The notes below the pieces were generated by a model. The model was not told the origin of the DNA, did no database searches, and worked only from the letters and a program-made list of their open reading frames with translations. DNA of 14,293 bases from Ruminococcus flavefaciens (lineage in GTDB: Bacteria > Bacillota > Clostridia > Oscillospirales > Ruminococcaceae). Positions 1-14,020 of this stretch are shown piece by piece (position 1 is the stretch's first letter; every line of letters starts with the position of its first letter). A program made the position numbers and the translations under genes. The stretch covers positions 5,635-19,927 of the forward strand of contig DEDQ01000050.1 of NCBI GenBank assembly GCA_002350065.1. Reading direction: 5' to 3'.

Positions 1-1180
<1,180 letters not shown>

Positions 1181-1192
1181 GGAGGTGCTGAA

Positions 1193-1795
1193 ATGGCAGG
1201 AATTGAAGAGATCCTGAACATGATAGACTCTCAGCAGAAGCAGACCGAGGACAATATCCTTTCGGCAGCGTCAAGGAAAGCGACCTCTATTGAAAGAGAA
1301 GGCAGAGACAGAGCTGAAAAGGCTTACGCTGAATATGTGAAAAAGGGAAAAGAGCAGCTCGAACGCGACTTTGAAAACTCCTGTTCATCGGCAGATGCGG
1401 CAATGAAGCGCCGTATCCTCGACAGCAAGATAAAGCTCATCGACGAGGCAGTTGAAGCGGCAGTAAAGAAGCTTGACACACTCCCTGACAAAGAGTATTT
1501 TTCAGTGCTTGAAAAGCTGGCGGTAAAGCGTCTTTCCGGCGGTGAGGGAGTTCTCTCGCTGAGCAGCCGCGACCTTGCAAGAGTTCCCGCAGACTTCATG
1601 CAGAAGCTCAGCGAAGCGGCAGCAAAGACCGGCGGCAGCGTAAAGCTTGCAAAGGAGCCTGCTGAGATAGAAAACGGATTCGTTCTGACATACGGTCTTA
1701 TCTCCGAGAACTGCAGCTTCCGCGCGATAATCGAAGCGGAGCGCGAGGGCGTGAGAGATACGGCTGCAAGAGTATTGTTCGGGCAGGTGAGCTGA
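1193..1795 (+). CDS. atpE: V-type ATPase subunit E (peripheral stalk)
   Basis: A 200-residue protein of normal length for the E subunit, which pairs with the G/H subunit in the peripheral stalk that keeps the catalytic head from turning. The first ~90 residues are highly charged and helical (EREGRDRAEKAYAEYVKKGK), as expected of the long coiled coil. The C-terminal globular part carries the typical ENGFVLTYGLISENCSFRAI pattern near residues 162-181 and ends in VLFGQVS. A strong GGAGGTG ribosome binding site directly abuts the atpK stop codon and precedes ATG 1193. The stop overlaps the next start in the sequence TGATG. The partner subunit G/H is not in the window and is expected upstream of atpI, as in E. 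hirae (ntpF). Confidence 0.93.
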   Translation: MAGIEEILNMIDSQQKQTEDNILSAASRKATSIEREGRDRAEKAYAEYVKKGKEQLERDFENSCSSADAAMKRRILDSKIKLIDEAVEAAVKKLDTLPDKEYFSVLEKLAVKRLSGGEGVLSLSSRDLARVPADFMQKLSEAAAKTGGSVKLAKEPAEIENGFVLTYGLISENCSFRAIIEAEREGVRDTAARVLFGQVS

Positions 1796-2733
1796 TGAGC
1801 ACTATCAAATATGCAAATGCCGTTGCCGCGATAAGGGCAATGGAGAATACACTCCTCAGCCGCAGCGATATCGAGCAGCTCATAAACTGCGCTACGAAGG
1901 CTGAATTCGAGAATCTTATCGCCTCAAAGCGCGGCGGTGAGGACTTCACTCTCGAGGGCGTGTGGGAAATGCTGAGGGGCTATGCTCCGGAATGCAAAGA
2001 GCTGGAGATACTGCTTTACAAAAACGATTTCCACAACCTCAAAGCCGCTCTGAAATCGAAGATAGCAGGCAAGGAGCCCGAGGGCTATTATATCCGTCCG
2101 ACAAACCTCGACCTCAAAGAGCTGTATCCGGCTGTTTCGGCTAAGGAATACGAAGCTCTTCCGGAGTATATCAGAAGCACCGCCGAGGAAGCATATGAGC
2201 TCCTGACGCGGACTCTTGACGGACAGCTTGCGGATTCGCTGATAGATACAGCCGCAATGCAGGCAATGAGGAAGGCTGCTGAGAAATGCGGCAGCGACTT
2301 CATAAAGAGCTATGTCGAGCTGACTATCGTCTGCGCCGACATCAAGACAGCATACAGGTGCGCGAAGATGAAGAAGCAGCGCAGCTTCCTTGAAATGGCG
2401 ATATGCGGCAGCGCAGAGCTCGACAAGGACACGCTCGTGCGAGCTGCTCTCGGCGGAGCTGAGAGCGTACTGAGCTGCGTTGAGAGCTCCTCTTACGCAG
2501 AGGCGGCAAAGCTGCTTGCAGAGTCGCCGGCTCAGTTCGAGAAGTGGTGCGACGACGTGATAATGGAGCTTGCCGAAACTGCCCGTATGCAGGCATTCGG
2601 AGCCGAACCTCTCGCGGCATATTATATCGCGGCAGAGGCGGAGCTCAAGGATATCCGTATACTCTCGGTATGCAGGGAATCCGGCACAGACAAGGAAACT
2701 ATGACTGAAAGGATGAGAAAGCTCTATGTCTGA
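1795..2733 (+). CDS. atpC: V-type ATPase subunit C (central-stalk/membrane connector)
   Basis: A 312-residue all-helical protein of the AC39/subunit d family, which sits as a socket on the rotor ring and receives the D-F shaft. The recognisable pattern is three repeats of helical bundles: YANAVAAIRAMENTLLS at the N terminus, YKNDFHNLKAALKSK near residues 77-91, and the C-terminal PLAAYYIAAEAELKDIRIL (about residues 270-288), the family hallmark before the final ERMRKLYV. The start ATG shares an A with the atpE stop (TGATG), so its translation probably depends on ribosomes arriving from atpE. The end overlaps atpF by 8 nt. Sequence conservation in this family is low, but position in the operon and the C-terminal motif leave little doubt. 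Confidence 0.93.
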   Translation: MSTIKYANAVAAIRAMENTLLSRSDIEQLINCATKAEFENLIASKRGGEDFTLEGVWEMLRGYAPECKELEILLYKNDFHNLKAALKSKIAGKEPEGYYIRPTNLDLKELYPAVSAKEYEALPEYIRSTAEEAYELLTRTLDGQLADSLIDTAAMQAMRKAAEKCGSDFIKSYVELTIVCADIKTAYRCAKMKKQRSFLEMAICGSAELDKDTLVRAALGGAESVLSCVESSSYAEAAKLLAESPAQFEKWCDDVIMELAETARMQAFGAEPLAAYYIAAEAELKDIRILSVCRESGTDKETMTERMRKLYV

Positions 2734-3046
2734 AACGTATAAAGTAGCCGCTATCGGCGATACAGCGAGCGTTTCCGGATTCGCAGCACTCGGACTTTCA
2801 GTGTTCTGCGAGACGGACGGAGCCAAGATATCAAAGCTGATAAACAGGCTCGCCGCCAACGATTTCGCGGTGATATATATCACAGAACCCGCAGCAGCAC
2901 TTGCGGCTGATACAATAAAAAAATACCGGAGCAGCAGACTGCCCTCCATTGTCCTTATCCCTGCTATAGAGGGAAATACCGGCGACGGAATGAGGGCTCT
3001 GCACGAGGCAGTCGAGAAGGCTGTCGGCTCGGATATCCTTAATTGA
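2726..3046 (+). CDS. atpF: V-type ATPase subunit F (central shaft)
   Basis: A 106-residue protein of the size and fold pattern of V-ATPase subunit F, a small Rossmann-like alpha/beta protein that binds subunit D in the rotating shaft. It opens with [20 protein letters not shown], the family's conserved first strand and turn. This is followed by the second-strand pattern [11 protein letters not shown] at about residues 48-58 and the third, [12 protein letters not shown], near residues 74-85. The gene begins inside the last codons of atpC with an 8-nt overlap and a GGATGAG-like ribosome site. It corresponds to ntpG of the E. hirae operon and should not be confused with F-type atpF (subunit b). 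Confidence 0.93.
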
Positions 3047-3062
3047 GGAAGGAGAAACGACT

Positions 3063-4832
3063 TTGGCAAGTATAGGAAATATAGTTAAGATATCAGGTCC
3101 TCTCGTAGTTGCTGAGGGCATGAGAGACGCCAATATGTTTGACGTTGTCCGCGTTAGTGACAAGCGTCTTATCGGAGAGATAATAGAAATGCACGGCGAC
3201 CGCGCCTCCATACAGGTATATGAGGAAACAGCCGGACTCGGCACAGGTCAGGCAGTAGAATCCACCGGCGAGCCCATGAGCGCCGAGCTCGGACCCGGAC
3301 TCATCGGCAGTATCTACGACGGAATACAGCGTCCGCTCGACGATATCCGCAAGGTCTGCGGAAACAATCTTGCCCGCGGAGTTGAAGTTCCCTCGCTCAA
3401 GCGCGACAGAAAGTGGAAGTTCACCCCCACAGTCGAGGTCGGCGACGAGATAACCGGCGGCGACGTGATAGGAACAGTTCCCGAGACCGATATCGTTCTG
3501 CACAAGATAATGGTGCCTAACGGCGTAAGCGGCAAGGTGAAGTCCATAAAAGAGGGCGAGTTCACAGTTGACGAGACCGTATGCGTAGTTGAGACAGAAA
3601 AGGGCGAAAAGGAGCTCTCCATGATGCAGAAATGGGGAGTAAGAAGCGGCAGACCCTACGCAAAGAAGCTTTCGCCGGATATGCCTCTTGTAACAGGTCA
3701 GCGAGTAATTGACTGTCTTTTCCCGATAGCAAAGGGAGGCGTTGCGGCTATCCCGGGACCTTTCGGAAGCGGCAAGACCGTTACACAGCACCAGCTCGCA
3801 AAATGGGCAGAGGCTGATATCATCGTATACATCGGCTGCGGCGAGCGCGGAAACGAGATGACCGACGTACTCAACGAGTTCCCGGAGCTCATCGACCCCA
3901 AGACCGGCAAGTCGCTCATGGAGCGTACAGTGCTCATCGCAAACACATCTGATATGCCTGTTGCGGCGCGTGAAGCCTCGGTATACACAGGCATCACCAT
4001 AGCAGAATACTACCGTGATATGGGCTATTCAGTAGCTCTTATGGCGGACTCTACATCGCGCTGGGCAGAGGCTCTGCGTGAGATGTCGGGACGTCTTGAG
4101 GAAATGCCCGGCGACGAGGGCTATCCCGCCTACCTCGGAAGCCGTCTCGCTCAGTTCTACGAGCGTGCCGGAAGAGTCATCTCCACCGGCAAGGAGGGCA
4201 GAGAGGGCGCACTTTCCGTTATCGGCGCAGTATCGCCTCCCGGCGGTGATATCTCCGAGCCTGTATCGCAGGCGACACTTCGTATCGTCAAGGTATTCTG
4301 GGGACTTGATTCCAACCTCGCATACCAGCGTCACTTCCCGGCGATAAACTGGCTGACGAGTTACTCGCTCTATGCGGATTCGCTTGCTCCGTGGTATGAC
4401 AACAACGTCTCCAAGGAGTGGATGACCTCGCGTGCAAGATTCATGTCGATACTTCACGACGAGGCAGAGCTGAAGGAAATAGTAAAGCTCATCGGTATGG
4501 ACGCGCTCTCGGCGAACGACCGTCTCAAAATGGAGACAGCCCGCTCGATACGTGAGGACTTCCTCCACCAGCTCGCATTCCACGAGGTAGATACCTACAC
4601 CAGCCTGAAGAAGCAGCTTTACATGATGAAGCTCATACTCAACTTCAACGACGAGGCTGAGGCTGCGATAAAGAAGGGCGCGGACGTAGAAGAGGTCGCA
4701 GGTCTTGCAGTGCGCGAGCACATCGGACGTTTCAAGTACGTACCCGAGAACGAGACAGACCACGAATTTGAAAAGCTCTCAGTCGAGATATCATCTGAGC
4801 TTGACGAGCTGCTCAACAAGGAGGAAGACTGA
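3063..4832 (+). CDS. atpA: V-type ATPase catalytic subunit A
   Basis: A 589-residue catalytic subunit of normal length (three per complex) that hydrolyses or makes ATP at its interface with B. The N-terminal beta-barrel begins [19 protein letters not shown]. It is followed by the A-specific non-homologous insert around residues 115-190 ([20 protein letters not shown]). The Walker A loop GPFGSGKT is at residues 232-239, with K238 and T239 contacting ATP. The conserved GERGNEM sequence is near residues 260-266 and carries the catalytic glutamate. Walker B ends in [15 protein letters not shown] with D329. The start is an unusual TTG, supported by AAGGAG at 3049-3054 with 8-nt spacing and by the family N terminus beginning exactly there. 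The stop overlaps atpB as TGATG. No defect is seen. Confidence 0.97.
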
Positions 4833-6208
4833 TGCCAAGAGAATACAGAACCATTGAAGAGGCGGCAGGTCCTCTGCTCCTCGTAAAGGATGTTGAAAAC
4901 GTAACATACGGCGAGCTTGCCGAGATAAGGCTTGCAAACGGCGAAAAGCGCCGCTGCCGCGTGCTTGAGATAGACGGAAACAACGCACTTGTCCAGCTTT
5001 TTGAGAATGCCGCAGGCATCAACCTCAAGGACAGCGCCGTAGTTTTCTCGGGACACCAGATGGAGCTCGGCGTATCCGAGGATATGCTCGGACGCGTATT
5101 TGACGGACTCGGCAGACCTATCGACGACGGTCCGGAGATAATCCCGGAAATGCGCATGGACGTAAACGGACTCCCCATGAACCCTGTTGCGAGAAAATAT
5201 CCTCAGGAGTTCATACAGACAGGCGTTTCTGCCATTGACGGTCTTAACACTCTTGTCCGCGGACAGAAGCTCCCTATCTTCTCCGCGAGCGGACTTCCCC
5301 ACGCTCAGCTTGCAGCTCAGATAGCGCGTCAGGCGCGAGTTCTCGGAGATAACGAGCAGTTTGCCGTTGTATTTGCGGCAATGGGAATCACCTTCGAGGA
5401 GTCGGAATACTTCGTTCGCAGCTTCCGTGAAACAGGAGCTCTCGACCGTACCGTCCTCTTCGTAAACCTCGCTAACGACTCAGCTATCGAGCGCCTTGCC
5501 ACTCCGAAAATGGCGCTTACAGCCGCAGAATATCTCGCATTCCAGAAGGGAATGCACGTACTTGTAATCCTTACTGATATCACCAACTACGCCGACGCTC
5601 TGCGTGAGGTATCGGCTGCGCGTAAGGAAGTTCCCGGACGCCGCGGCTATCCCGGATATATGTACACCGACCTCGCGTCTATCTATGAGCGTGCAGGACG
5701 TCAGGACGGCAAGGAAGGCTCTATCACGATGATACCTATCCTCACCATGCCCGAGGATGACAAGACCCACCCGATCCCTGACCTTACCGGCTACATTACC
5801 GAGGGACAGATAATCCTCTCGCGTGAGCTCTACCGCAAGGGAATAACTCCGCCGGTAGACGTTCTGCCGTCGCTTTCACGACTGAAAGACAAGGGTATCG
5901 GCAAGGGCAAGACCCGCGCCGACCACTCCGACACGATGAACCAGCTCTTCTCGGCATATGCCCGCGGAAAGGACGCAAAGGAGCTCATGGTCGTACTCGG
6001 CGAGGCGGCACTCACGCCTACAGACCTGCTCTATGCGAAGTTTGCAGACGAGTTTGAAAAGCGCTACGTATCGCAGGGCTTCGACAACAACCGCAGCATC
6101 GAGGAAACTCTTTCCATCGGCTGGGAGCTGCTCAGGCTTCTGCCGCGAAGCGAGCTGAGACGTATCAGGGAGGAGTACCTCACTGAGTACTACGACAAAC
6201 AGGATTGA
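4832..6208 (+). CDS. atpB: V-type ATPase regulatory (non-catalytic) subunit B
   Basis: A 458-residue B subunit of normal length, alternating with A in the hexameric head. The equivalent of the P-loop is degenerate, [19 protein letters not shown] (about residues 150-168), with no GKT lysine, as expected for the non-catalytic subunit. Other landmarks are [13 protein letters not shown] near residue 90, [18 protein letters not shown] near residues 192-209, and [20 protein letters not shown] near residues 249-268. [20 protein letters not shown] near residues 348-367 contains the arginine that reaches the catalytic site of subunit A. The start ATG overlaps the atpA stop and has AAGGAGG at 4819-4825 inside the end of atpA. 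A and B are therefore translationally coupled, fitting their equal stoichiometry. Confidence 0.97.
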
Positions 6209-6219
6209 GGTGAGCTGCA

Positions 6220-6870
6220 TTGGCAAGACTTAACGTAAATCCTACGCGAATGGAGCTGAGCAAGCTGAAAAAGAAGCTTGTCTCGGCGCAGCGCGGACAC
6301 AAGCTTCTGAAGGATAAGCGCGACGAGCTGATGAGACAGTTCATGATACTCATCAAGGAGGACAGACAGCTTCGCACAGAGGTCGAGGCGGCTATCGCCG
6401 AGGCAGACCGCTACATGGCGGTCGCGGGCTCAGTAATGCAGAGGGAAGCGCTTGAAACGGCGCTGATGCTCCCGAAGCAGGAGGTCGAGCTCGAAGTAGG
6501 CGAGAAGAACGTCATGAGCGTGTATATCCCTGTATTCAGCCCGAAATACCGCACGAGCGACACCAGCGACATCTACTCCTACGGCACGGCATTCACATCC
6601 GCAGACCTTGACGGCGCGGTAAGCGCACTAAGCGAGGTCTTCCCGAAGATGATACGCCTTGCAGAAGTTGAGAAGGCGTGTCAGCTCATGGCTGACGAGA
6701 TAGAAAAGACCCGCCGACGCGTAAATGCTCTCGAGCATATCATGATACCAGACTATCAGGAGACCATAAAGTATATCACGATGAAGCTCTCGGAAAACGA
6801 GCGCAGCACAACGACCTCCTTGATGAAGGTCAAGGACATGGTACTCAAACAGAGTCACAACTTCACATAA
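6220..6870 (+). CDS. atpD: V-type ATPase subunit D (central shaft)
   Basis: A 216-residue protein matching subunit D, the long helical hairpin that turns inside the A3B3 head. It starts with the diagnostic NVNPTRMELSKLKKKLVSAQ and GHKLLKDKRDELMRQF. It carries the C-terminal family signature EIEKTRRRVNALEHIMIPDY near residues 162-181, followed by the second arm of the coiled coil. Translation starts at TTG 6220, the only start that keeps the conserved N terminus. The ribosome site TGAGGTG (6206-6212) overlaps the atpB stop. D is the last gene of the operon, with the terminator stem six bases after its stop. No H or J homologue follows, unlike in E. hirae. Confidence 0.96.
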   Translation: MARLNVNPTRMELSKLKKKLVSAQRGHKLLKDKRDELMRQFMILIKEDRQLRTEVEAAIAEADRYMAVAGSVMQREALETALMLPKQEVELEVGEKNVMSVYIPVFSPKYRTSDTSDIYSYGTAFTSADLDGAVSALSEVFPKMIRLAEVEKACQLMADEIEKTRRRVNALEHIMIPDYQETIKYITMKLSENERSTTTSLMKVKDMVLKQSHNFT

Positions 6871-6912: not shown

Positions 6913-7170
6913 TCACTTTTTGCCGAAGAGGGAGAAGCCTTTCTTCTCATACGGCTCGGAGCTTACAGAGATGAATTTGTAACCGGTCGCACCGATAACT
7001 TCGCGGAGCTTAGCCTCGTCGAGCGGCTCTTCTGAGATGATTTCGGTAGTATTGTTCTTGTGCGAGGAATTGACCTTGCTTACGTTAAAGTTTTTGCGAA
7101 TCTCGTCATTAACGTGTGATTCGCACATACCGCACATCATACCCTCGATATTGATTATAGTTTTTATCAT
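6913..7170 (-). CDS. Small heavy-metal-associated (HMA, CopZ-like) domain protein
   Basis: An 85-residue cytoplasmic protein consisting of one HMA domain, which binds a soft metal ion, usually Cu(I), and passes it to a partner. The metal loop is GMMCGMCESH with C13 and C16 (CxxC). It follows the first strand IKTIINIEG, and the rest fits the beta-alpha-beta-beta-alpha-beta ferredoxin-like fold, ending VIGATGYKFISVSS. A basic tail EKKGFSLFGKK (residues 75-85) extends beyond the domain. The start has AAGGAGGT at 7177-7184, six bases upstream, and a near-consensus promoter. No copper ATPase or repressor gene is adjacent, so the partner must be elsewhere. Metal identity is not shown by sequence; Cu, Hg or Zn handling are all possible, and copZ would be an over-precise name. 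Confidence 0.88.
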   Translation of the reverse strand: MIKTIINIEGMMCGMCESHVNDEIRKNFNVSKVNSSHKNNTTEIISEEPLDEAKLREVIGATGYKFISVSSEPYEKKGFSLFGKK

Positions 7171-7229: not shown

Positions 7230-7262
7230 GCTTGCGAATGGTATTATTGACAACGCGACTAA

Positions 7263-7493
7263 GTAATAGAGAATACATATAAGAAAATTGAACATTTTAT
7301 TGAGTGGCGTGAAAAAATTGCAGAGCTTGGCGATATTGATGGTGACGGCAGGATCAATACAGCTGATGAATCGCTCATGCTTTATGTCATGTTAAAATCA
7401 CATAAAACCGGTGACGTTAATACTGACGGTGCAGTTGATGCGATAGATGCTTCTGAAGCTCTTGCAATTTATACTGAAAATGCTGCAAAATAA
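7263..7493 (+). pseudogene. Dockerin-like C-terminal fragment without a start (gene relic)
   Basis: The frame opens directly after a TAA at 7260-7262, runs 76 codons to TAA 7491-7493, and has no ATG, GTG or TTG before the middle of the domain. From base 7332 it encodes two EF-hand-like calcium loops. The first is DIDGDGRINTAD with its helix ESLMLYVMLKSH; the second is DVNTDGAVDAID with helix ASEALAIYTENAAK. Aspartate/asparagine at loop positions 1, 3, 5, 9 and 12 are intact in both. That duplicated arrangement at a C terminus is the type I dockerin pattern, which docks secreted enzymes onto cohesins in cellulosome-bearing Ruminococcus and Clostridium. The preceding 23 codons match nothing I know. 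I infer the 3' end of a deleted secreted-protein gene. A stand-alone EF-hand protein using a rare start is less likely. The stretch is AT-richer than its neighbours. Confidence 0.6.
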
Positions 7494-7510
7494 TAGTTCC
7501 TTCATATAAG

Positions 7511-7539
7511 ATCAGCGGCACTTTGATAGTGCCGCTGAT
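7511..7539. terminator. Hairpin terminator between the dockerin relic and the helicase gene
   Basis: An 11-bp perfect inverted repeat (ATCAGCGGCAC / GTGCCGCTGAT) surrounds a TTTGATA loop and can extend outward by weaker pairs. On the + strand it is followed by TTTATTATAT and lies 17 bases after the relic's stop, so it probably belonged to that gene. On the - strand it lies just after the helicase stop codon but has a poor T-tract there. It may still end the helicase operon. Confidence 0.7.
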
Positions 7540-7543
7540 TTTA

Positions 7544-9781
7544 TTATATGAACATATCGCTCCATTCGGCGATGCGCTCCTTCATTCCGGAGATATCGAG
7601 AATGCCGTAAGCGAAGCCCTTTTTTATAAGCTCCGGCGGCACAAACTGGTCGTACTTCTCGAACATGGGGACTTCATTCGGGTAGACGAGCTCGAGCGGG
7701 TCGAATTCGACAGCCGCCTCCTCCGCAAGGACGCGGAAGAATTCTTCAGGCTGGACTTTCATGGTGAACTGGATATAATACGGACGGGCGGAGTCCATAC
7801 CGCGCAGACCGAGCCTTTCGGCGCAGCGGAGCTTGAGAAAGCGCTCCATAGCGAAGAAAGCGTATGTACCGAGCCAAGGGAAAAGCGCCCACATATTGCC
7901 TCCGAGGCAGATGAGCGGCTGTTCGGTGACTCCGGAATTGCGGGCGGATGTTCTTGCCTGAGCGAGTCTCAGCACGGCATTTTTCATAAGGTAAGGGTAG
8001 CTTTTATCCTCGCTGAGAGCCTGTTTCATGCGCAGGAGTATCTTGGTATTGATGTCGCCGGGGCAGTCGCCGAAGTAGGCCGGGACCTTTCCCTTTATCA
8101 GCGAGCAGTAGACGATGCGGCGTTTGTGGTCGATATCCTCCACGACCCACACATGACCCGCGATAGCGACTTTCTCGCCGATAGGCGGAGGGCTGACGAT
8201 AGTGCCGAGCTCCTGCGAATCATAGCGGACAGTGTACTCCTCGTTCTCCTGAAAAACGGCATAGAATTTGAAGCTGTTTATCACTCTTTCGCCGGCGAGA
8301 CCGACGATAAGACCGCCCTCCTCAGTGCGCTGGATATGTTCAGTTTCGAGAAGGTGACGTAGCAGGATACGGAAGTCGTCCTGAGATATCCTGTGAAAAT
8401 ATCGGAGCGTAAGAACGCGCGAAGCGAGCTGAGCTGGAGTGAGCTCGCCGCATGAAGCGAGCGTGCTCATGGTCTGATGATAGAGCAGTGAAAAGGGGAG
8501 TCTGTCGAGCTTTGGCGGCTCGACCCAGCGCTCCTCAACGTAGACCTGCACAAGAGCGATGCCCTGCAAAAGCTTCCACGGTATAGTTTCGGGGAGCATT
8601 GAGCGCGGCTCTGGGAGCTCCTCACGTATCACGAACCACATTTCGGGCGGCAGACCTCTTCTTCCGGTACGACCCATACGCTGGAGAAAGGACGAAACGG
8701 TAAACGGAGCGTCTATCTGGAAAGCGCGTTCGAGCCTTCCGATGTCGATACCGAGCTCGAGGGTCGCAGTCGTGCAGGTAGTCATGAAGATATCGTCGTC
8801 CTTCATAGCGGCTTCAGCGGTCTCGCGCAGAGCGGCTGAGAGGTTGCCGTGATGTATCATGAAGCGGTCGGGCTCGTGTTTGGCTTCGCAGTAGGAGCGC
8901 AGGGTAGTTGTCACAGCTTCGCACTCCTCGCGGGAGTTGACGAACACGAGGCATTTTTTACCGCGTGTATGCTCGAAAACGTAGCCCATACCCTCGTCGG
9001 CGTGCTCGGGAGCGGTATCGGTCTTATCGTCGAGTACAGGCAGAGCCTCCACGTCGGCGGAGCTGTCAGGCTGATTCTGCTGAGAGATATAGAAATGCTC
9101 CATTGAGAGACGCCATTTCACACCTGGAGCGTTGATTTTCGGGATAAGTGTGCGGCGTTTTGTTCCGGCTGAGAGGAATTCTCCAGCGGCTTCGAGGTCG
9201 CCGATAGTTGCCGACAGACCTATCCTGCGGGGCTCAACGCCTGCAAGCTTCGAGAGCCTTTCGATGAGGCAGAGCGTCTGACCTCCGCGGTCGCCGCGCA
9301 TGAGGGAGTGTACCTCGTCGATGACGACAAATCTCAGGTCGCCGAACAGTTTGGGGATTAGCGCGTGCTTTCGCAGGAGCATAGCCTCGAGCGATTCCGG
9401 AGTTATCTGCAAAATGCCTGACGGGTGTTTAAGCATTCTTGCCTTGTGAGACTGAGCCGCATCGCCGTGCCAGTGCCATACTGGGATATCAGCCTCCTCG
9501 CAGAGCTCGGTCAGACGGGCGAACTGGTCATTGATGAGAGCCTTGAGCGGTCCGATGTAGACAGCTCCGACAGAGCGCGGCATATCCTCTGAAAACAGGG
9601 TAAGTATCGGAAAAAACGCAGCTTCCGTCTTGCCGGAGGCGGTAGAAGCCGAGAGCAGAAGGTGCTCATCGGTGTTGAATATGGCGTCTGCTGCGGCAGT
9701 CTGTATCGCGCGTAGCGACTCCCAGTTATTGCGGTAGATGAAGTCCTGAATAAAAGGAGCGTAGCGGTCGAAAGCGTTCAT
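7544..9781 (-). CDS. Lhr/BrxHI-like superfamily II DEAD/DEAH-box helicase
   Basis: A 745-residue ATP-dependent nucleic acid helicase of the Lhr-like class, the family used as BrxHI in type 2 BREX phage-resistance loci. Motifs in order: I, SASTASGKTEA (K51); Ia, GPLKALINDQ near 77; Ib, TPES near 127; II, DEVH at 155-158; III, SAT at 190-192; IV, CLVFVNSREECE at 277-288; V, TATLELGIDIG at 338-348; VI, QRMGRTGRRG at 367-376. Residues after ~400 should form the winged helix and Lhr-type core extension, with an SPPPIGEKVAIAGHVWVVED beta region near 530-550. The protein is half the length of full E. coli Lhr (~1500), so the large C-terminal half is absent. No nuclease motif is seen. The start has TGAGGTG overlapping the stop of the upstream ATPase gene. 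It is the third gene of an operon with the ATPase and TerB-domain genes; its role there, probably DNA remodelling, is inferred. Confidence 0.9.
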   Translation of the reverse strand: MNAFDRYAPFIQDFIYRNNWESLRAIQTAAADAIFNTDEHLLLSASTASGKTEAAFFPILTLFSEDMPRSVGAVYIGPLKALINDQFARLTELCEEADIPVWHWHGDAAQSHKARMLKHPSGILQITPESLEAMLLRKHALIPKLFGDLRFVVIDEVHSLMRGDRGGQTLCLIERLSKLAGVEPRRIGLSATIGDLEAAGEFLSAGTKRRTLIPKINAPGVKWRLSMEHFYISQQNQPDSSADVEALPVLDDKTDTAPEHADEGMGYVFEHTRGKKCLVFVNSREECEAVTTTLRSYCEAKHEPDRFMIHHGNLSAALRETAEAAMKDDDIFMTTCTTATLELGIDIGRLERAFQIDAPFTVSSFLQRMGRTGRRGLPPEMWFVIREELPEPRSMLPETIPWKLLQGIALVQVYVEERWVEPPKLDRLPFSLLYHQTMSTLASCGELTPAQLASRVLTLRYFHRISQDDFRILLRHLLETEHIQRTEEGGLIVGLAGERVINSFKFYAVFQENEEYTVRYDSQELGTIVSPPPIGEKVAIAGHVWVVEDIDHKRRIVYCSLIKGKVPAYFGDCPGDINTKILLRMKQALSEDKSYPYLMKNAVLRLAQARTSARNSGVTEQPLICLGGNMWALFPWLGTYAFFAMERFLKLRCAERLGLRGMDSARPYYIQFTMKVQPEEFFRVLAEEAAVEFDPLELVYPNEVPMFEKYDQFVPPELIKKGFAYGILDISGMKERIAEWSDMFI

Positions 9782-9790
9782 GCGGGCACC

Positions 9791-11113
9791 TCATATGGTA
9801 AATTCCGCGAATTCTTCCTCGGCAGCCTCTCCCTCGGGAGCCGCCGACGGCATTGAATCGGAAAGAATGAATTCGCTGACGTTTATGCCGGGGTTCTGAT
9901 AGATTATGTCAAGCAGCTCGATGAGGTCGCGAATGACCTCGCGGGGAGTGATATGGCTTCCGGAGCCGATACGTCCGAATTCGAGCTTGATGAAGTTGAC
10001 GAGGTCGTCCTGACTGATAACGCGTTCATATCCGAAAAGTCCGGCGTGGATATCGGCGAGCTTTTCCGTAAGTACGAGCATTTCCTCATAGGTGAGCGGC
10101 GAGAGGTGAATAACAGGCGCGAGCATATCCTTCACGCCCTCTCTGCCGAAGCGACCCTCCGCGAGCCTTGAACGGAGCGCCTCATAGCTGTATACTCCGC
10201 GGCGCGTATCCTCGATGCACTGAGGAGTTCCGCCCATGATGATACCGAGGTGCTTAGCCTTGCCCTGTAGTGTATCATTATACATCGTGAGAATTTTTTC
10301 GTAGTTGTACTGACGGGTTATCGCGTTCGGTATCTTATAGATGTTGACGAGCTCGTCGATGAGCACGAGCAGACCGCCGTATCCGGCGCGTTTTAGGAAA
10401 GCCGCGAACAGCTTGATGTATTCATACCAGTCGTCATCGGTGATGATAATATTCACGCCGAGGTCTGACTTAGCCTCAGTTTTAGTGGAATATTCGCCGC
10501 GGAACCACTTCACGACCTTAGCCTTGCTCTCGTCGTCGCCGGAGGCGTATGAGCGGTAGTAAATAGTCAGCAGCTTTGCAAAATCGAATCCGTGGACCAT
10601 TTCATTCAGCGCTGATATGACCTCATAAATCTTCTTCTCGACGGCATTCGCGAACTCGGGCGAATCTGCCGCGAGCCCTGTTTCAGCCGCAGTTTCAGCC
10701 TGCACGCTGCTTATCCAGCGGTCGAGAATTAGAGTTAGAGCACCGCCGTCGGGACGGGTCTTAGTGGACATATTGCGGATAAGCTCCTTGTAAGTGGCAA
10801 GTCCCTGACCCTTTGTGCCCTGAAGTCTGCGCTCGGGTGAGAGGTCAGCGTCAACAACGACAAAGCCCTTGTCCATGACGTGTGAGCGGATAGTTTGCAG
10901 AAGAAAGCTCTTACCGCTTCCGTATTTGCCGACGATGAAGCGGAACGAAGCTCCGCCGTCCTCGATTATGGCGACATCGTGCAGGAGCGCGTCTATCTCG
11001 AGCTCGCGTCCGACGGTTATGTACGGAAGTCCGATACGCGGAACCACACCGCCTTTAAGTGAGTTGATTATTGCCGAAGCTATGCGCTTCGGGACTGTTG
11101 GTCTGTTGTTCAT
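9791..11113 (-). CDS. BrxD-like P-loop ATPase (DUF2791 family)
   Basis: A 440-residue ATP-binding protein resembling BrxD, the ATPase encoded next to the BrxHI helicase in type 2 BREX loci. The N terminus reads IINSLKGGVVPRIGLPYITV, then GRELEIDALL, as in AAA/Orc-like ATPases. Walker A is GKYGSGKS (residues 62-69, K68). The strongly family-specific DADLSPERRLQGTKGQGLAT lies at residues 88-107. Walker B is LLVLIDE (248-254, D253 and E254), followed by a sensor-1-like strand GIIMGGTPQCIED near 290-302. Arginines in the EALRSRLAEGRFG segment (311-323) may act as a finger. The C terminus is acidic (EGEAAEEEFAEF). It starts 9 nt after the TerB gene stop, and its stop is 9 nt from the helicase start. 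BREX partners PglX and PglZ are absent here, so the exact role, perhaps loading or regulating the helicase, is inferred. Confidence 0.87.
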   Translation of the reverse strand: MNNRPTVPKRIASAIINSLKGGVVPRIGLPYITVGRELEIDALLHDVAIIEDGGASFRFIVGKYGSGKSFLLQTIRSHVMDKGFVVVDADLSPERRLQGTKGQGLATYKELIRNMSTKTRPDGGALTLILDRWISSVQAETAAETGLAADSPEFANAVEKKIYEVISALNEMVHGFDFAKLLTIYYRSYASGDDESKAKVVKWFRGEYSTKTEAKSDLGVNIIITDDDWYEYIKLFAAFLKRAGYGGLLVLIDELVNIYKIPNAITRQYNYEKILTMYNDTLQGKAKHLGIIMGGTPQCIEDTRRGVYSYEALRSRLAEGRFGREGVKDMLAPVIHLSPLTYEEMLVLTEKLADIHAGLFGYERVISQDDLVNFIKLEFGRIGSGSHITPREVIRDLIELLDIIYQNPGINVSEFILSDSMPSAAPEGEAAEEEFAEFTI

Positions 11114-11122
11114 AATTTCACC

Positions 11123-12604
11123 TCATGAGACGAAGCCTTGCAGCTCGTCGATGTAATCTTCAATGAGTTCGGGAACGTCGGTGCTCATGTCAATGACGGT
11201 GTCGCCGAAGAAGTCGAACAGCTTCTCGTTGATGCTGTCAGCGAGAATAGAGGGCATAGTTCCGGCATTTTTAGCCGCCGCAGCCCAGTCGCCGCCGCGG
11301 AGCAGAGCCCGCAGGAACAGGATTTCCGCGTCCGTGAGGGGCGAGTCCGAAGCCGGTATATCCTCCTGTACCGGCTCGGGAGCATACTCTTCCGGCACAT
11401 TTTCCTCCTCCTCAACGATGAGCTTATCCCGCGTGATATCGGCAGCGGAGCGAATGCTCTCGAGCTTGGAGAGGTCTATCTCTATCTTCAAAGCCTCGCG
11501 GCGAGAGTTTTCCTGCGCGATGAGGTCGAGCTCCTTGCTGACGATACCGGCGATGTTTTTAGAGACCTCAGCAGGCCGCAGTTTATAGCGGAAATCGTAC
11601 TTTTCACGCATGAGGTAGTCGAGCATTTTCATCAGCTCGCCGAGCTGACCGTTGCGGGTCCGGCAGCCGTAAAACCGCCGGCAGCGCCAAATGCCGCTGC
11701 GGCAGGTATATGAGTGTATCGCATTGAGCGAGTAATCGGTCGAGCGGGAGGTATTCCTGTCGTAGAACACCGAAGCTTCAAACAGCCGGCAGTTCATTTC
11801 AGTAATATGACCGAAGTATTTCTCGCACAGTGAGTTCTTCCTGTGGTCACGGAAAAACGCCGAAACAGCGCGGAATACGCGCACAGCGGCAGCCCGGAAC
11901 TCCTCCGGATACTGAATGTAAAACCGCGAACGCTCTGCCGGATAAGATGAAAGAGCAGTTATTGCCGCGAAGAGCTCCTCATCGGGGGTATTCTCCCAGT
12001 TTATGAGCTTCAGCAGTGCCGTATCGAATCTGATATCGGGGTTATCGCTGATGAGTGCGGGGTCGAGCTCGTAGTAGACGCAGTAGTCGACTATCCAGCG
12101 GGGGAGGTGCTTTGCGAGGGATTCGTCCGTGTAGTGCGAGCCGAGCTCTTTCAGCAGCGCGAGTCCCTCTTCCGGAGCTTTCACGCCGATGTTGTTGATA
12201 AGCTCATATGCGTAGATGAAAACAAACGGCATGGGAGCGGCTTTGTATTCGCCTTTTCGGACGTATGAGCGCCACGAGAAATAGCCGCGGAGCTGTTCAT
12301 TGTCGAGGTCGTGGTAGGTCGGGTAGAATTTAGTGAAGCCGGTCGTGTATTCGTATACGTCTGAGAAATTCTCCATAAATTTTCCCTGATTGTAGAAGAG
12401 CCAGGCGGAGGTTTTCCAGTAGGCTTCGGGAGTGTAGGCGATAGCCTTCATATCCTTGATTTTCTGCGGAGTATCGGGAGTTTTTATCTGCGAGGCGCGT
12501 TTGATTATAGGCTCATCGGAGTAGACCTTGTCGCGGAAGGCACGGCTGTTGAGCAGCTTTTCATCGGTGAGTATCGAGTTTAATATGTTTTTCACGTCCG
12601 ACAT
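11123..12604 (-). CDS. TerB_N / TerB_C domain protein, first gene of the helicase operon
   Basis: A 493-residue protein with no signal peptide or membrane helix. Numbering from ATG 12604, residues ~55-290 match the TerB_N domain: YTPEAYWKTSAWLFYNQGKF, then the signature LRGYFSWRSYVRKGEY (105-120), FVFIYAYELINNIGV (127-141) and a helical tail. Residues ~350-490 match TerB_C: REALKIEIDLSKLESIRSAA (369-388), an acidic linker rich in E and P (396-420), and a last helical part, LTDAEILFLRALLRGGDW (423-440). A cysteine/arginine-rich patch, YTCRSGIWRCRRFYGCRTRN (299-318), joins the halves. These domains are known from predicted stress-response and DNA-processing clusters; tellurite resistance is a historical label and is not implied. 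A GTG at 12608-12610 is in frame, but AAGGAGG (12612-12618) is spaced 7 nt from ATG 12604 and only 1 from the GTG, so ATG is chosen. It probably scaffolds or senses for the ATPase and helicase. Confidence 0.82.
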   Translation of the reverse strand: MSDVKNILNSILTDEKLLNSRAFRDKVYSDEPIIKRASQIKTPDTPQKIKDMKAIAYTPEAYWKTSAWLFYNQGKFMENFSDVYEYTTGFTKFYPTYHDLDNEQLRGYFSWRSYVRKGEYKAAPMPFVFIYAYELINNIGVKAPEEGLALLKELGSHYTDESLAKHLPRWIVDYCVYYELDPALISDNPDIRFDTALLKLINWENTPDEELFAAITALSSYPAERSRFYIQYPEEFRAAAVRVFRAVSAFFRDHRKNSLCEKYFGHITEMNCRLFEASVFYDRNTSRSTDYSLNAIHSYTCRSGIWRCRRFYGCRTRNGQLGELMKMLDYLMREKYDFRYKLRPAEVSKNIAGIVSKELDLIAQENSRREALKIEIDLSKLESIRSAADITRDKLIVEEEENVPEEYAPEPVQEDIPASDSPLTDAEILFLRALLRGGDWAAAAKNAGTMPSILADSINEKLFDFFGDTVIDMSTDVPELIEDYIDELQGFVS

Positions 12605-12637
12605 TTTCACGCCTCCTTTTCGATATCGTTACCCTTT

Positions 12638-12666
12638 ATTATAGCATACCGCACCGGATAAAGCAA
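12638..12666 (-). promoter_or_regulatory. Extended -10 promoter of the TerB-ATPase-helicase operon
   Basis: On the - strand a perfect TATAAT (12638-12643) is preceded by TGC (12644-12646), an extended -10 element. A weaker -35, TTGCTT (12661-12666), sits 17 bases upstream. Initiation near 12631 gives a leader of about 27 nt. The three genes thus form their own transcription unit, separate from ackA, whose terminator lies upstream. Confidence 0.8.
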
Positions 12667-12775: not shown

Positions 12776-12801
12776 AGCCCCGTGGCAATTGCCTCGGGGC
12801 T
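12776..12801 (-). terminator. Intrinsic terminator of ackA
   Basis: An inverted repeat AGCCCCG / CGGGGCT (7 bp) continues past one T-T mismatch into GGC / GCC around an AATT loop. On the - strand it is followed by TTTTTC, and it starts about 20 bases after the ackA stop. It separates ackA from the TerB operon promoter downstream. Confidence 0.88.
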
Positions 12802-12820: not shown

Positions 12821-14020
12821 TTACTTGGAGATAAGCTCGAGAGTATCTCTTGCGATGAGGAGCTCCTCATTTGTAGGAACGATCCAGACCTCGATCTTTG
12901 AATCGGGAGTGCTGAGCTTTGTGAGCTTGCCTCTTACGGACTTGTTGAGCTCCTTGTCGATCTTGATGCCGAAGTATTCCATACCTGTGCATACGCCCTC
13001 GCGTACTTCCCATGAATTCTCGCCGATGCCGCCTGTGAAGAGGATAGCGTCAACGCCGTTCATAGCAGCAGCGTAGGAACCGATGTACTTCTTTATCTCG
13101 TAAACAAGCATATCGGAAACGAGCTGAGCTCTCTTGTTGCCCTCGTTAGCAGCAGCCTGAACGTCGCGGTTGTCAGAGCCAACGCCGGAAACGCCGAGGA
13201 AGCCTGACTTCTTGTTCATGTATTCGCTCATCTCAGAGGGAGTAAAGCCGTGCTTGTCAGCGACGAAAGTAACAGCAGAGGGGTCAACAGCGCCGGTACG
13301 TGTACCCATAACAACACCGTCGAGGGGAGTGAAGCCCATGGAAGTATCAACAGACTTGCCGCCGTCAACAGCAGTAATGGAAGAGCCGTTGCCGAGGTGG
13401 CAGGAAACTATCTTGAGATCCTTAACGTCCTTGCCCATAGCCTCAGCGAGAGCCTTGGAAACGAATCTGTGAGATGTGCCGTGGAAGCCGTACTTTCTTA
13501 CGTGGTACTTCTCGTAGTCCTCATAGGGGAGACCGAACATATAAGCCTTAGCGGGCATAGTCTGGTGGAAAGCTGTATCGAAAACAACTACCTGAGGAAC
13601 GTTTGCGGGGATAACGCTCTTGCAGGCGCGGAGAGCGAGAGCGTGAGCGTGGTTATGTACGGGAGCGAGCTCGCGGAGCTCGTCGATCTTGTCGATAACT
13701 TCGTCTGTAACGAGAACTGACTTGTCGAATACGTCAGCGCCCTGTACTATACGGTGACCAACAGCGGAGATCTCGTCCATGCTGTCGATGACCTTAGCGT
13801 CGCTCTTTGTGAGAGCTTCAACGAGCTTCATGAAAGCTTCTGTATGTGTCGGGAAAGCGCAGTCCTCATCGAGAGTTCTGCCGTCAGCAGCCTTGTGAGC
13901 GATGTGACCGTCGATGCCGATACGGTCGCAGTTACCCTTTGCGAGAACGCTCTCGTCGTCCATATTGATGAGCTGGTACTTGAGAGATGAGCTTCCTGCG
14001 TTAACAACTAAGATAAGCAT
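12821..14020 (-). CDS. ackA: Acetate kinase
   Basis: A 399-residue cytoplasmic enzyme of normal length that transfers phosphate between acetyl phosphate and ADP, the ATP-yielding step of acetate fermentation. The first family signature is VVNAGSSSLKYQL with N7. Active-site residues, by comparison with the Methanosarcina thermophila enzyme, are all present: R90 in GHRIVQG, H122, D148 in VVFDTAFHQTMP, H180 in YGFHGTSHRFV, R241 in GVVMGTRTGAVDP, and the glutamate of PTNEELLIARDT (385/386). The nucleotide-binding segments HLGNGSSITAV (208-218) and FTGGIGENS (328-336) are intact. AAAGGAA lies 10 nt before the ATG. It has its own promoter and terminator, and no pta gene is adjacent on the visible side. 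It is divergent from tmcAL, a common clostridial neighbourhood. Confidence 0.98.
   Translation of the reverse strand: MLILVVNAGSSSLKYQLINMDDESVLAKGNCDRIGIDGHIAHKAADGRTLDEDCAFPTHTEAFMKLVEALTKSDAKVIDSMDEISAVGHRIVQGADVFDKSVLVTDEVIDKIDELRELAPVHNHAHALALRACKSVIPANVPQVVVFDTAFHQTMPAKAYMFGLPYEDYEKYHVRKYGFHGTSHRFVSKALAEAMGKDVKDLKIVSCHLGNGSSITAVDGGKSVDTSMGFTPLDGVVMGTRTGAVDPSAVTFVADKHGFTPSEMSEYMNKKSGFLGVSGVGSDNRDVQAAANEGNKRAQLVSDMLVYEIKKYIGSYAAAMNGVDAILFTGGIGENSWEVREGVCTGMEYFGIKIDKELNKSVRGKLTKLSTPDSKIEVWIVPTNEELLIARDTLELISK

What the first reader, a model, noticed from the sequence alone, without database searches (positions are those of the whole stretch)
7544..12666. Stand-alone TerB_N/C + BrxD-like ATPase + BrxHI-like helicase operon: candidate defence or DNA-processing system
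Seen: three tightly packed genes under one promoter, bounded by hairpins, between housekeeping genes. Known: the DUF2791 ATPase (BrxD) and Lhr-like helicase (BrxHI) are paired in type 2 BREX loci, and TerB_N/TerB_C domains occur in predicted stress and DNA-processing clusters. Here the pair occurs without PglX methyltransferase, PglZ, PglW/PglY or any visible nuclease; a TerB-domain protein stands in the first position. Inference: a minimal three-part module in which the TerB protein recognises or scaffolds, the ATPase switches, and the helicase acts on nucleic acid. It could be anti-phage or a repair system.
Basis: partly seen in the sequence, partly recalled or inferred. Interest (0 to 1): 0.75.

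Follow-up and report, generated by a model that had tools for sequence, protein, structure and literature searches.

The report
Shango three-gene phage defence operon
Three neighbouring genes in a gut Ruminococcus form a compact copy of Shango, an already described bacterial defence system against viruses whose workings are still unknown, so the locus itself is ordinary but its relatives hint at which part recognises the virus.

Summary
In detail: three tightly packed minus-strand genes (TerB_N/TerB_C protein, BrxD-like ATPase, BrxHI-like helicase) lie between ackA and an HMA gene. The reading as an unnamed system does not: the proteins match PADLOC's SngA, SngB and SngC (1e-74, 3e-192, 2e-278), i.e. 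Shango, shown by others to be anti-phage. A BREX remnant is unlikely: no PglZ in this 74%-complete genome. What the session adds: in 125 genomes of the genus the three proteins are found in the same 50, even where one gene has moved away; SngA diverges about four times faster than SngB and SngC in all 1596 locus pairs; some Shango-free relatives (4 of 20 regions) have ackA and HMA adjacent, consistent with insertion; and SngA here lacks the central TerB domain (0 of 66 length-selected relatives) that four Pseudomonadota SngA have. Best mechanism, inferred: SngA is the phage-facing sensor, SngB an ORC/Cdc6-like loader, SngC the translocating helicase. A new member of a known kind; interest modest.

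The parts
12776..12801 (-). ackA terminator hairpin upstream of the operon
   Evidence: read by eye: AGCCCCG...CGGGGCT followed by TTTTTC; not in the scan, whose loop limit is 8
12638..12666 (-). likely sngABC promoter: TTGCTT-17-TATAAT, extended -10
   Evidence: read by eye; not listed (weak -35)
11123..12604 (-). sngA: TerB_N + TerB_C protein, 493 aa, no TerB core domain
   Evidence: (PADLOC SngA 1e-74); structure model
9791..11113 (-). sngB: BrxC/BrxD-like AAA+ ATPase, 440 aa, Walker A GKYGSGKS at residues 62-69
   Evidence: (PADLOC SngB 2.6e-192; BrxD 5.5e-47)
7544..9781 (-). sngC: SF2 DExH helicase of the BrxHI/Lhr-like kind, 745 aa; GKT 50-52, DEVH 155-158, SAT 190-192, QRMGRTGRR 367-375
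   Evidence: (PADLOC SngC 2.3e-278; BrxHI 4.4e-119)
7511..7539 (-). terminator hairpin after sngC, 12-bp stem, also faces the plus strand
   Evidence: -25.1 kcal/mol for 7495-7550, z -7.15
7263..7493 (+). 5'-truncated type I dockerin remnant between the operon and the HMA gene
   Evidence: PF00404, 3.4e-6; in-frame stop at 7260-7262
6913..7170 (-). HMA (heavy-metal-associated) small protein, right-hand neighbour
   Evidence: PF00403, 3.6e-8
12821..14020 (-). ackA, acetate kinase, left-hand neighbour

Best explanation
The locus is a complete Shango anti-phage system (sngA-sngB-sngC) of a compact SngA type, lying between ackA and an HMA gene in a Ruminococcus genome. SHOWN HERE: three full-length proteins with intact ATPase and helicase motifs, all-or-none co-occurrence, presence in part of the genus, and one fast and two slow proteins. 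SHOWN BY OTHERS: Shango of P. aeruginosa PA14 lowers plating 10-100-fold for many, not all, phages tested. INFERRED: SngA is the sensor and specificity part that meets a phage DNA structure or protein, with a winged-helix-like TerB_C domain that may touch DNA; SngB is an ORC/Cdc6-type AAA+ loader that couples SngA's recognition to ATP; SngC is then loaded and translocates along or unwinds phage DNA, stalling its replication. With no nuclease gene in the operon, damage would come from helicase action itself or from a host or accessory nuclease.
For: PADLOC SngA/B/C nearly full-length matches. The published Shango of S. faviae plasmid 4 has the same gene order and is the record L150 fetched here. 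SngA, SngB and SngC are each in the same 50 of 125 genus genomes (compared); of the 49 other carriers 43 have all three adjacent and 6 do not. Prevalence falls from 50 of 125 (genus) to 25 of 197 (family sample) to 15 of 249 at 40% identity or more (phylum sample), own genome counted each time. SngA mean pairwise identity 42% against 81% and 80% for SngB and SngC; A is the least conserved in 1596 of 1596 pairs. TerB_C region resembles winged-HTH domains (weak). BrxD as ORC/Cdc6-type ATPase that may load BrxHI: PMC12839542 (passages). SngC in a defence-linked SF2 clade with BrxHI, DruE and DpdJ: PMC12278908 (passages). Plating data: PMC10250203 (passages).
Confidence: 0.82

Rival explanations
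1. A housekeeping DNA-repair or chromosome-processing module of Ruminococcus, kept vertically, with no phage role.
For: Same site in clades; housekeeping neighbours; unremarkable G+C; carriers in 38 of 52 genomes with AckA identity of 90% or more against 6 of 50 below; only single, mostly generic PADLOC matches among 168 neighbour representatives and 75 ORFs of the own contig.
Against: 75 of 125 genus genomes lack all three. Among 44 carriers SngB identity follows AckA identity weakly: rho 0.32, p 0.035; without the 8 closest rho -0.26, p 0.13. SngB relatives on 692 plasmid records. Published anti-phage activity of the family.
Confidence: 0.1
2. A remnant or satellite of a type 2 BREX locus (BrxD + BrxHI) that lost PglX, PglZ, BrxC and PglW.
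For: SngB matches BrxD (5.5e-47) and SngC matches BrxHI (4.4e-119) in PADLOC; BrxD and BrxHI are a linked dyad in type 2 BREX (PMC12839542, passages).
Against: SngB and SngC models score far better (2.6e-192, 2.3e-278); SngB is below NCBIfam's BrxD cut-off (160 of 350 bits). No PglZ in the own genome (genome 74% complete). A dedicated third gene always comes along in the genus.
Confidence: 0.03
3. Shango acts mainly as a genome-integrity sensor of the Hachiman kind: SngC patrols DNA and, on meeting phage-induced DNA ends, releases a host nuclease or another toxic activity (abortive infection).
For: Hachiman's helicase works so (PMC12278908, start of abstract and passages); SngC has weak sequence similarity to HamB (5.5e-4); a PD-(D/E)XK nuclease gene and a UvrD-helicase gene follow sngC directly in S. 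faviae.
Against: No nuclease gene next to the operon here; [quoted passage not shown]
Confidence: 0.25

Closest known systems
Shango (SngABC), PADLOC PDLC03958-03960; Johnson et al. 2023 (PMC10250203, passages); Millman et al. 2022 (recalled; not held)
   Same: Gene order A-B-C, nearly full-length model matches for all three, single operon.
   Different: SngA here is 493 aa with TerB_N and TerB_C only. The four Pseudomonadota SngA examined (L150, L197, L198, L200) are 769-847 aa with a central TerB domain (PF05099); an archaeal one (L199) has it below the cut-off.
Type 2 BREX, BrxD + BrxHI dyad (PMC12839542, passages)
   Same: Homologous ATPase and helicase.
   Different: No PglZ found; SngA present; scores far below those of the Shango models.
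Hachiman (HamAB; PMC12278908, passages) and Druantia type III (DruH-DruE; PMC13316683, passages)
   Same: SF2 helicase plus a partner that senses or acts; SngC groups with DruE, BrxHI and DpdJ.
   Different: No HamA-type nuclease or DruH match among the window proteins scanned against PADLOC; an added AAA+ ATPase.
Lhr / MrfA (YprA) helicases (names for 5v9x and 7lhl recalled)
   Same: Helicase core of SngC; best solved-structure matches by sequence are 5v9x, 7lhl and YprA 6znp.
   Different: SngC occurs with SngA and SngB in the genus.

Membership tests
Shango | SngB: ATPase of the SngB family | tested here: met
   PDLC03959, 2.6e-192, residues 5-439 on model 4-438 of 439; Walker A intact
Shango | SngC: helicase of the SngC family | tested here: met
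   PDLC03960, 2.3e-278, residues 2-735 on model 2-715 of 720; motif residues GKT, DE-H, SAT and QR-GRTGRR invariant in 47 sequences
Shango | SngA: TerB-related protein of the SngA family | tested here: met
   PDLC03958, 1e-74, model 49-525 of 528; TerB_N and TerB_C present
Shango, as listed in a review table | Central TerB domain PF05099 (PMC10952713, table passage). I hold it to be accessory, not defining, as the PADLOC SngA model matches the compact form nearly end to end | tested here: not met
   0 of 66 SngA of this kind, selected for 480-540 aa; 0 of 12 SngA of the phylum sample, any length; 0 of 2 Paenibacillus; present in 4 of 4 Pseudomonadota
Shango | Three genes in one operon, order A-B-C | tested here: met
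   exceptions among relatives: L041 order A-C-B; sngC not beside sngAB in G013, G106, G567, G568; sngA not beside sngBC in G053
Shango | Anti-phage activity | not testable with these tools
   published for PA14, and cited for E. coli, in the passages I read
BREX type 2 | PglZ | tested here: not met
   PF08665: none in the own genome, which is 73.8% complete, so absence is not final
BREX type 2 | BrxD above the curated cut-off | tested here: not met
   NF033438: 160.4 bits against a cut-off of 350
BREX type 2 | PglX, BrxC and PglW beside BrxD/BrxHI | tested here: inconclusive
   the other window genes scanned are V-ATPase subunits, AckA and HMA; no BREX family at 1e-10 among 75 further ORFs of the contig; not searched in the rest of the genome

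The most novel reading that the evidence does not exclude
Bacillota and some others carry a distinct compact Shango subtype in which SngA lacks the TerB core and is a rapidly diversifying, DNA-contacting sensor that programmes a conserved SngB-SngC loader-helicase motor. In Ruminococcus it has become a long-kept chromosomal defence held at a few fixed sites outside defence islands, with a cargo slot between sngB and sngC.
Probability: 0.3. Interest if true: 0.5.

Novelty: new member of a known kind. Interest (0 to 1): 0.3.

Why it matters
I found no description of Shango's mechanism in the held papers (listings of searches; passages of a few papers read; most subscription journals not held). 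The comparison made here points to a testable division of labour: SngA varies, SngB and SngC do not, and in 125 genus genomes none is found without the others. Ruminococcus, with 33 of 68 high-quality genomes positive, offers dozens of natural SngA variants on one conserved motor, which suits SngA-swap experiments. The compact SngA also suggests that the tellurite-type TerB domain is not needed for the module to be kept.
Full report
What is there. The window holds, on the minus strand, three genes in 5.1 kb: a TerB_N/TerB_C protein (12604-11123, 493 aa), a BrxC_BrxD-family ATPase (11113-9791, 440 aa) and a DExH helicase (9781-7544, 745 aa), with 9-bp gaps. Upstream are a terminator of ackA and a promoter, both read by eye; downstream is a 12-bp hairpin (z -7.15 for the piece 7495-7550). 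The Walker A of SngB and the helicase motifs of SngC are intact, and the SngC motif residues are invariant among 47 sequences.

What it is. PADLOC matches the three proteins nearly end to end to SngA (1e-74), SngB (2.6e-192) and SngC (2.3e-278); the BREX models BrxD (5.5e-47) and BrxHI (4.4e-119) score far lower, and NCBIfam's BrxD model is under its cut-off. This is Shango. Johnson et al. 2023 (PMC10250203, passages) describe Shango as a three-gene system with TerB, helicase and ATPase domains, report a modest 10-100-fold lower plating for many but not all phages and strong protection in liquid, and note a weaker effect of an E. coli Shango found by another group. A published annotation of SngA, SngB and SngC on S. 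faviae plasmid 4 (PMC10221251, passages) has the coordinates of a record that the SngB search returned here. Shango is reported in rumen genomes in general (PMC13356809, passages).

Host and neighbours. The window is part of a 99-kb contig of a 2.08-Mb, 74%-complete genome. The closest named loci by SngB are Ruminococcus flavefaciens YRD2003 and a record titled Anaerotruncus sp. MC2020 (91%), then Ruminococcus MAGs. No PglZ was found in the genome. PADLOC on 75 other ORFs of the contig (130 aa or more, outside the window) gave six families, one ORF each, at 1.8e-30 or weaker.

Co-occurrence. A genus search found SngB in 50 of 125 genomes (33 of the 68 of high quality), SngC at E up to 1e-150 in 50 and SngA at E up to 1e-20 in 50. 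They are the same 50: the hit tables, copied by eye for the 49 carriers other than the window's own, agree name by name. Some hits are incomplete: SngA in G054, G075 and G107, SngC in G024, G030 and G097; SngA of G096 and SngB of G030 are split between frames, and a few frames hold one stop; I did not sort contig ends from real damage. Of these 49 carriers 43 have the three genes adjacent (starts under 4 kb apart). In G013 and G106 sngC, and in G053 sngA, lies on another contig although the contig goes on beyond the place where it would be; G025 looks alike (7 kb follow sngB) but was not examined; in G024 and G075 the genes lie at contig ends (coordinates). In the genomes of L045, L058, L035 (same assembly as G106 by coordinates) and G013, sngC is not beside sngAB but is present elsewhere, at 82-85% identity to the window's. 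So the three proteins are kept as a set even when the operon is broken. Among the 80 loci, 79 have a SngA match and 75 a SngC match on the held stretch; of the six losses three are loci where the held contig ends at sngB (L070, L078, L080) and three are L035, L045 and L058.

Distribution. Outside the genus the system thins out: 25 of 197 in a family sample (this counts the own genome, G053 of the genus, two short fragments, G451 and G564, and one weak hit, G456) and 15 of 249 in a phylum sample at 40% identity or more, own genome counted; 11 further genomes there have weaker hits. Within the genus, carriers cluster: 8 of 8, 11 of 18, 19 of 26, 3 of 14 and 3 of 36 genomes in falling bands of AckA identity to the window (95-100, 92-94, 90-91, 87-89, 80-86%), i.e. 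38 of 52 at 90% or more and 6 of 50 below (AckA hits cut short left out). That speaks for long vertical keeping. Among 44 carriers SngB identity follows AckA identity weakly (rho 0.32, p 0.035) and not once the eight closest are left out (rho -0.26, p 0.13): G101 has AckA 94% and SngB 75%, G090 has AckA 80% and SngB 85%. That speaks for some exchange. SngB relatives, all under 60% identity, are on 692 plasmid records, 684 over at least 80% of the query, 542 typed conjugative; the lowest, at 25-27%, are probably BrxD-like. None is on 50,697 phage records.

Sites. Of 20 Shango-free ackA regions fetched, 4 (G083, G122, G094, G092) have HMA directly after ackA, G003 has HMA two genes further on, and the rest have other genes or too little sequence; of four carriers with Shango elsewhere (G062, G101, G009, G022), G101 has HMA directly after ackA. 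The window has sngABC plus a dockerin remnant in that place, which is consistent with an insertion but rests on few empty sites. Shango also lies on the 3' side of ackA in G030, G078 and G084 (same orientation), in G013 (one gene between) and in G033 and G048 (tail to tail), and in close relatives such as G007, G074 and G085 the order is sngABC-HMA-ackA. Other clades have other fixed sites: thiamine/suf genes in the R. albus group and a LysR/M18-peptidase site in the R. flavefaciens group (neighbour names partly recalled from sequence, LysR confirmed). So the system has entered several places and then stayed put within clades.

Neighbour scan. Of 366 neighbour ORFs of at least 120 aa I took 224 representatives and gave 168 of them to PADLOC (117 and 51): 33 families (25 shown) and 5 families matched at 1e-10, one member each, many of generic enzymes. 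There was no control set, so I claim only that no defence island is evident.

Evolution of the parts. In 56 relatives of the 80 plus the window, those with three full-length genes, mean pairwise identity is 42% for SngA, 81% for SngB and 80% for SngC; SngA is the least conserved in all 1596 pairs, with a distance about four times larger. SngA blocks 61-80, 101-120, 381-400 and 461-493 are the most conserved (0.69-0.73) and 401-420 the least (0.30). A protein search with SngA gave 554 relatives (only the 7995 best candidates were scored); the 120 listed all carry TerB_N and TerB_C and none the central TerB domain. None of 66 aligned SngA has it, but these were chosen for 480-540 aa, so longer ones were left out. 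Of the 14 other phylum-sample loci SngA was found in 12, of 514 to 1431 aa, none with it; SngA of L195 and L196 was not found by BLAST and not examined. Two Paenibacillus SngA lack it. Four Pseudomonadota SngA have it, and an archaeal one below the cut-off. The compact form is not only in Bacillota: the 66 include L077, titled Deltaproteobacteria bacterium, and L080, titled Acidobacteriota. N-terminal parts vary widely: a TM2 membrane domain in L194 and L199, and a 1431-aa SngA in L188.

How it most likely works (inference). BrxD is classed as an ORC/Cdc6-type AAA+ ATPase that may load or activate BrxHI on DNA (PMC12839542, passages), and SngC groups with BrxHI, DruE and DpdJ in a defence-linked SF2 clade (PMC12278908, passages). 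By analogy SngB would load or activate SngC. SngA, the fast part with a possible DNA-binding end, would be what meets the phage. The helicase would then block phage replication, alone or with a nuclease; in S. faviae a PD-(D/E)XK nuclease gene and a UvrD-helicase gene follow sngC directly. Arms-race evolution and relaxed constraint are not separated by my data.

Verdict. Already described as a kind of system; this locus is a new member of the compact, TerB-less SngA type. The value lies in the all-or-none retention and in the contrast between one fast and two slow components. On rechecking the calls I added the clustering of carriers by AckA band, the small number of empty sites and the length selection of the 66 SngA; none moved the odds enough to change them.

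Noticed in passing
window 7263-7493 (+): 5'-truncated type I dockerin domain directly after an in-frame stop, left between the operon and the HMA gene: a cellulosome gene remnant at the site.
   Followed up: partly
L026 10308-10799, L027, L029, L036 (also L005 2890-3384); L063 4989-5336, L072; L051 10365-14760; L068; L081: Extra genes sit between sngB and sngC in some relatives: a P-loop (adenylate-kinase-like) protein of 163-164 aa, an ArsC-family protein, a cluster with a NUDIX-like protein, an acyltransferase-like protein (last two named by eye). 19 loci, of at most 74 with both genes called, have a gap over 100 bp there.
   Followed up: partly
L150 6015-11721: In S. faviae the Shango operon runs directly into a PD-(D/E)XK nuclease gene and a UvrD-helicase gene (AddAB-like by recall): a possible effector for Shango.
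   Followed up: no
L194 6524-8503; L199 3482-5971: SngA with an N-terminal TM2 membrane domain, which would place some Shango complexes at the membrane.
   Followed up: no
L188 596-4891; L153 4517-7675: Very long SngA (1431 and 1052 aa) whose N-terminal extensions match no Pfam family at 0.01.
   Followed up: no
L126-L144, ackA flanks: ackA is a recurrent neighbour of Shango in several arrangements; in the closest relatives the order is sngABC-HMA-ackA, which a single inversion of the window's order does not explain.
   Followed up: partly
window 1-6870 (+); L053 2310-8973: V-type ATPase operon next to the operon; in L053 Shango directly follows the V-ATPase D gene.
   Followed up: partly
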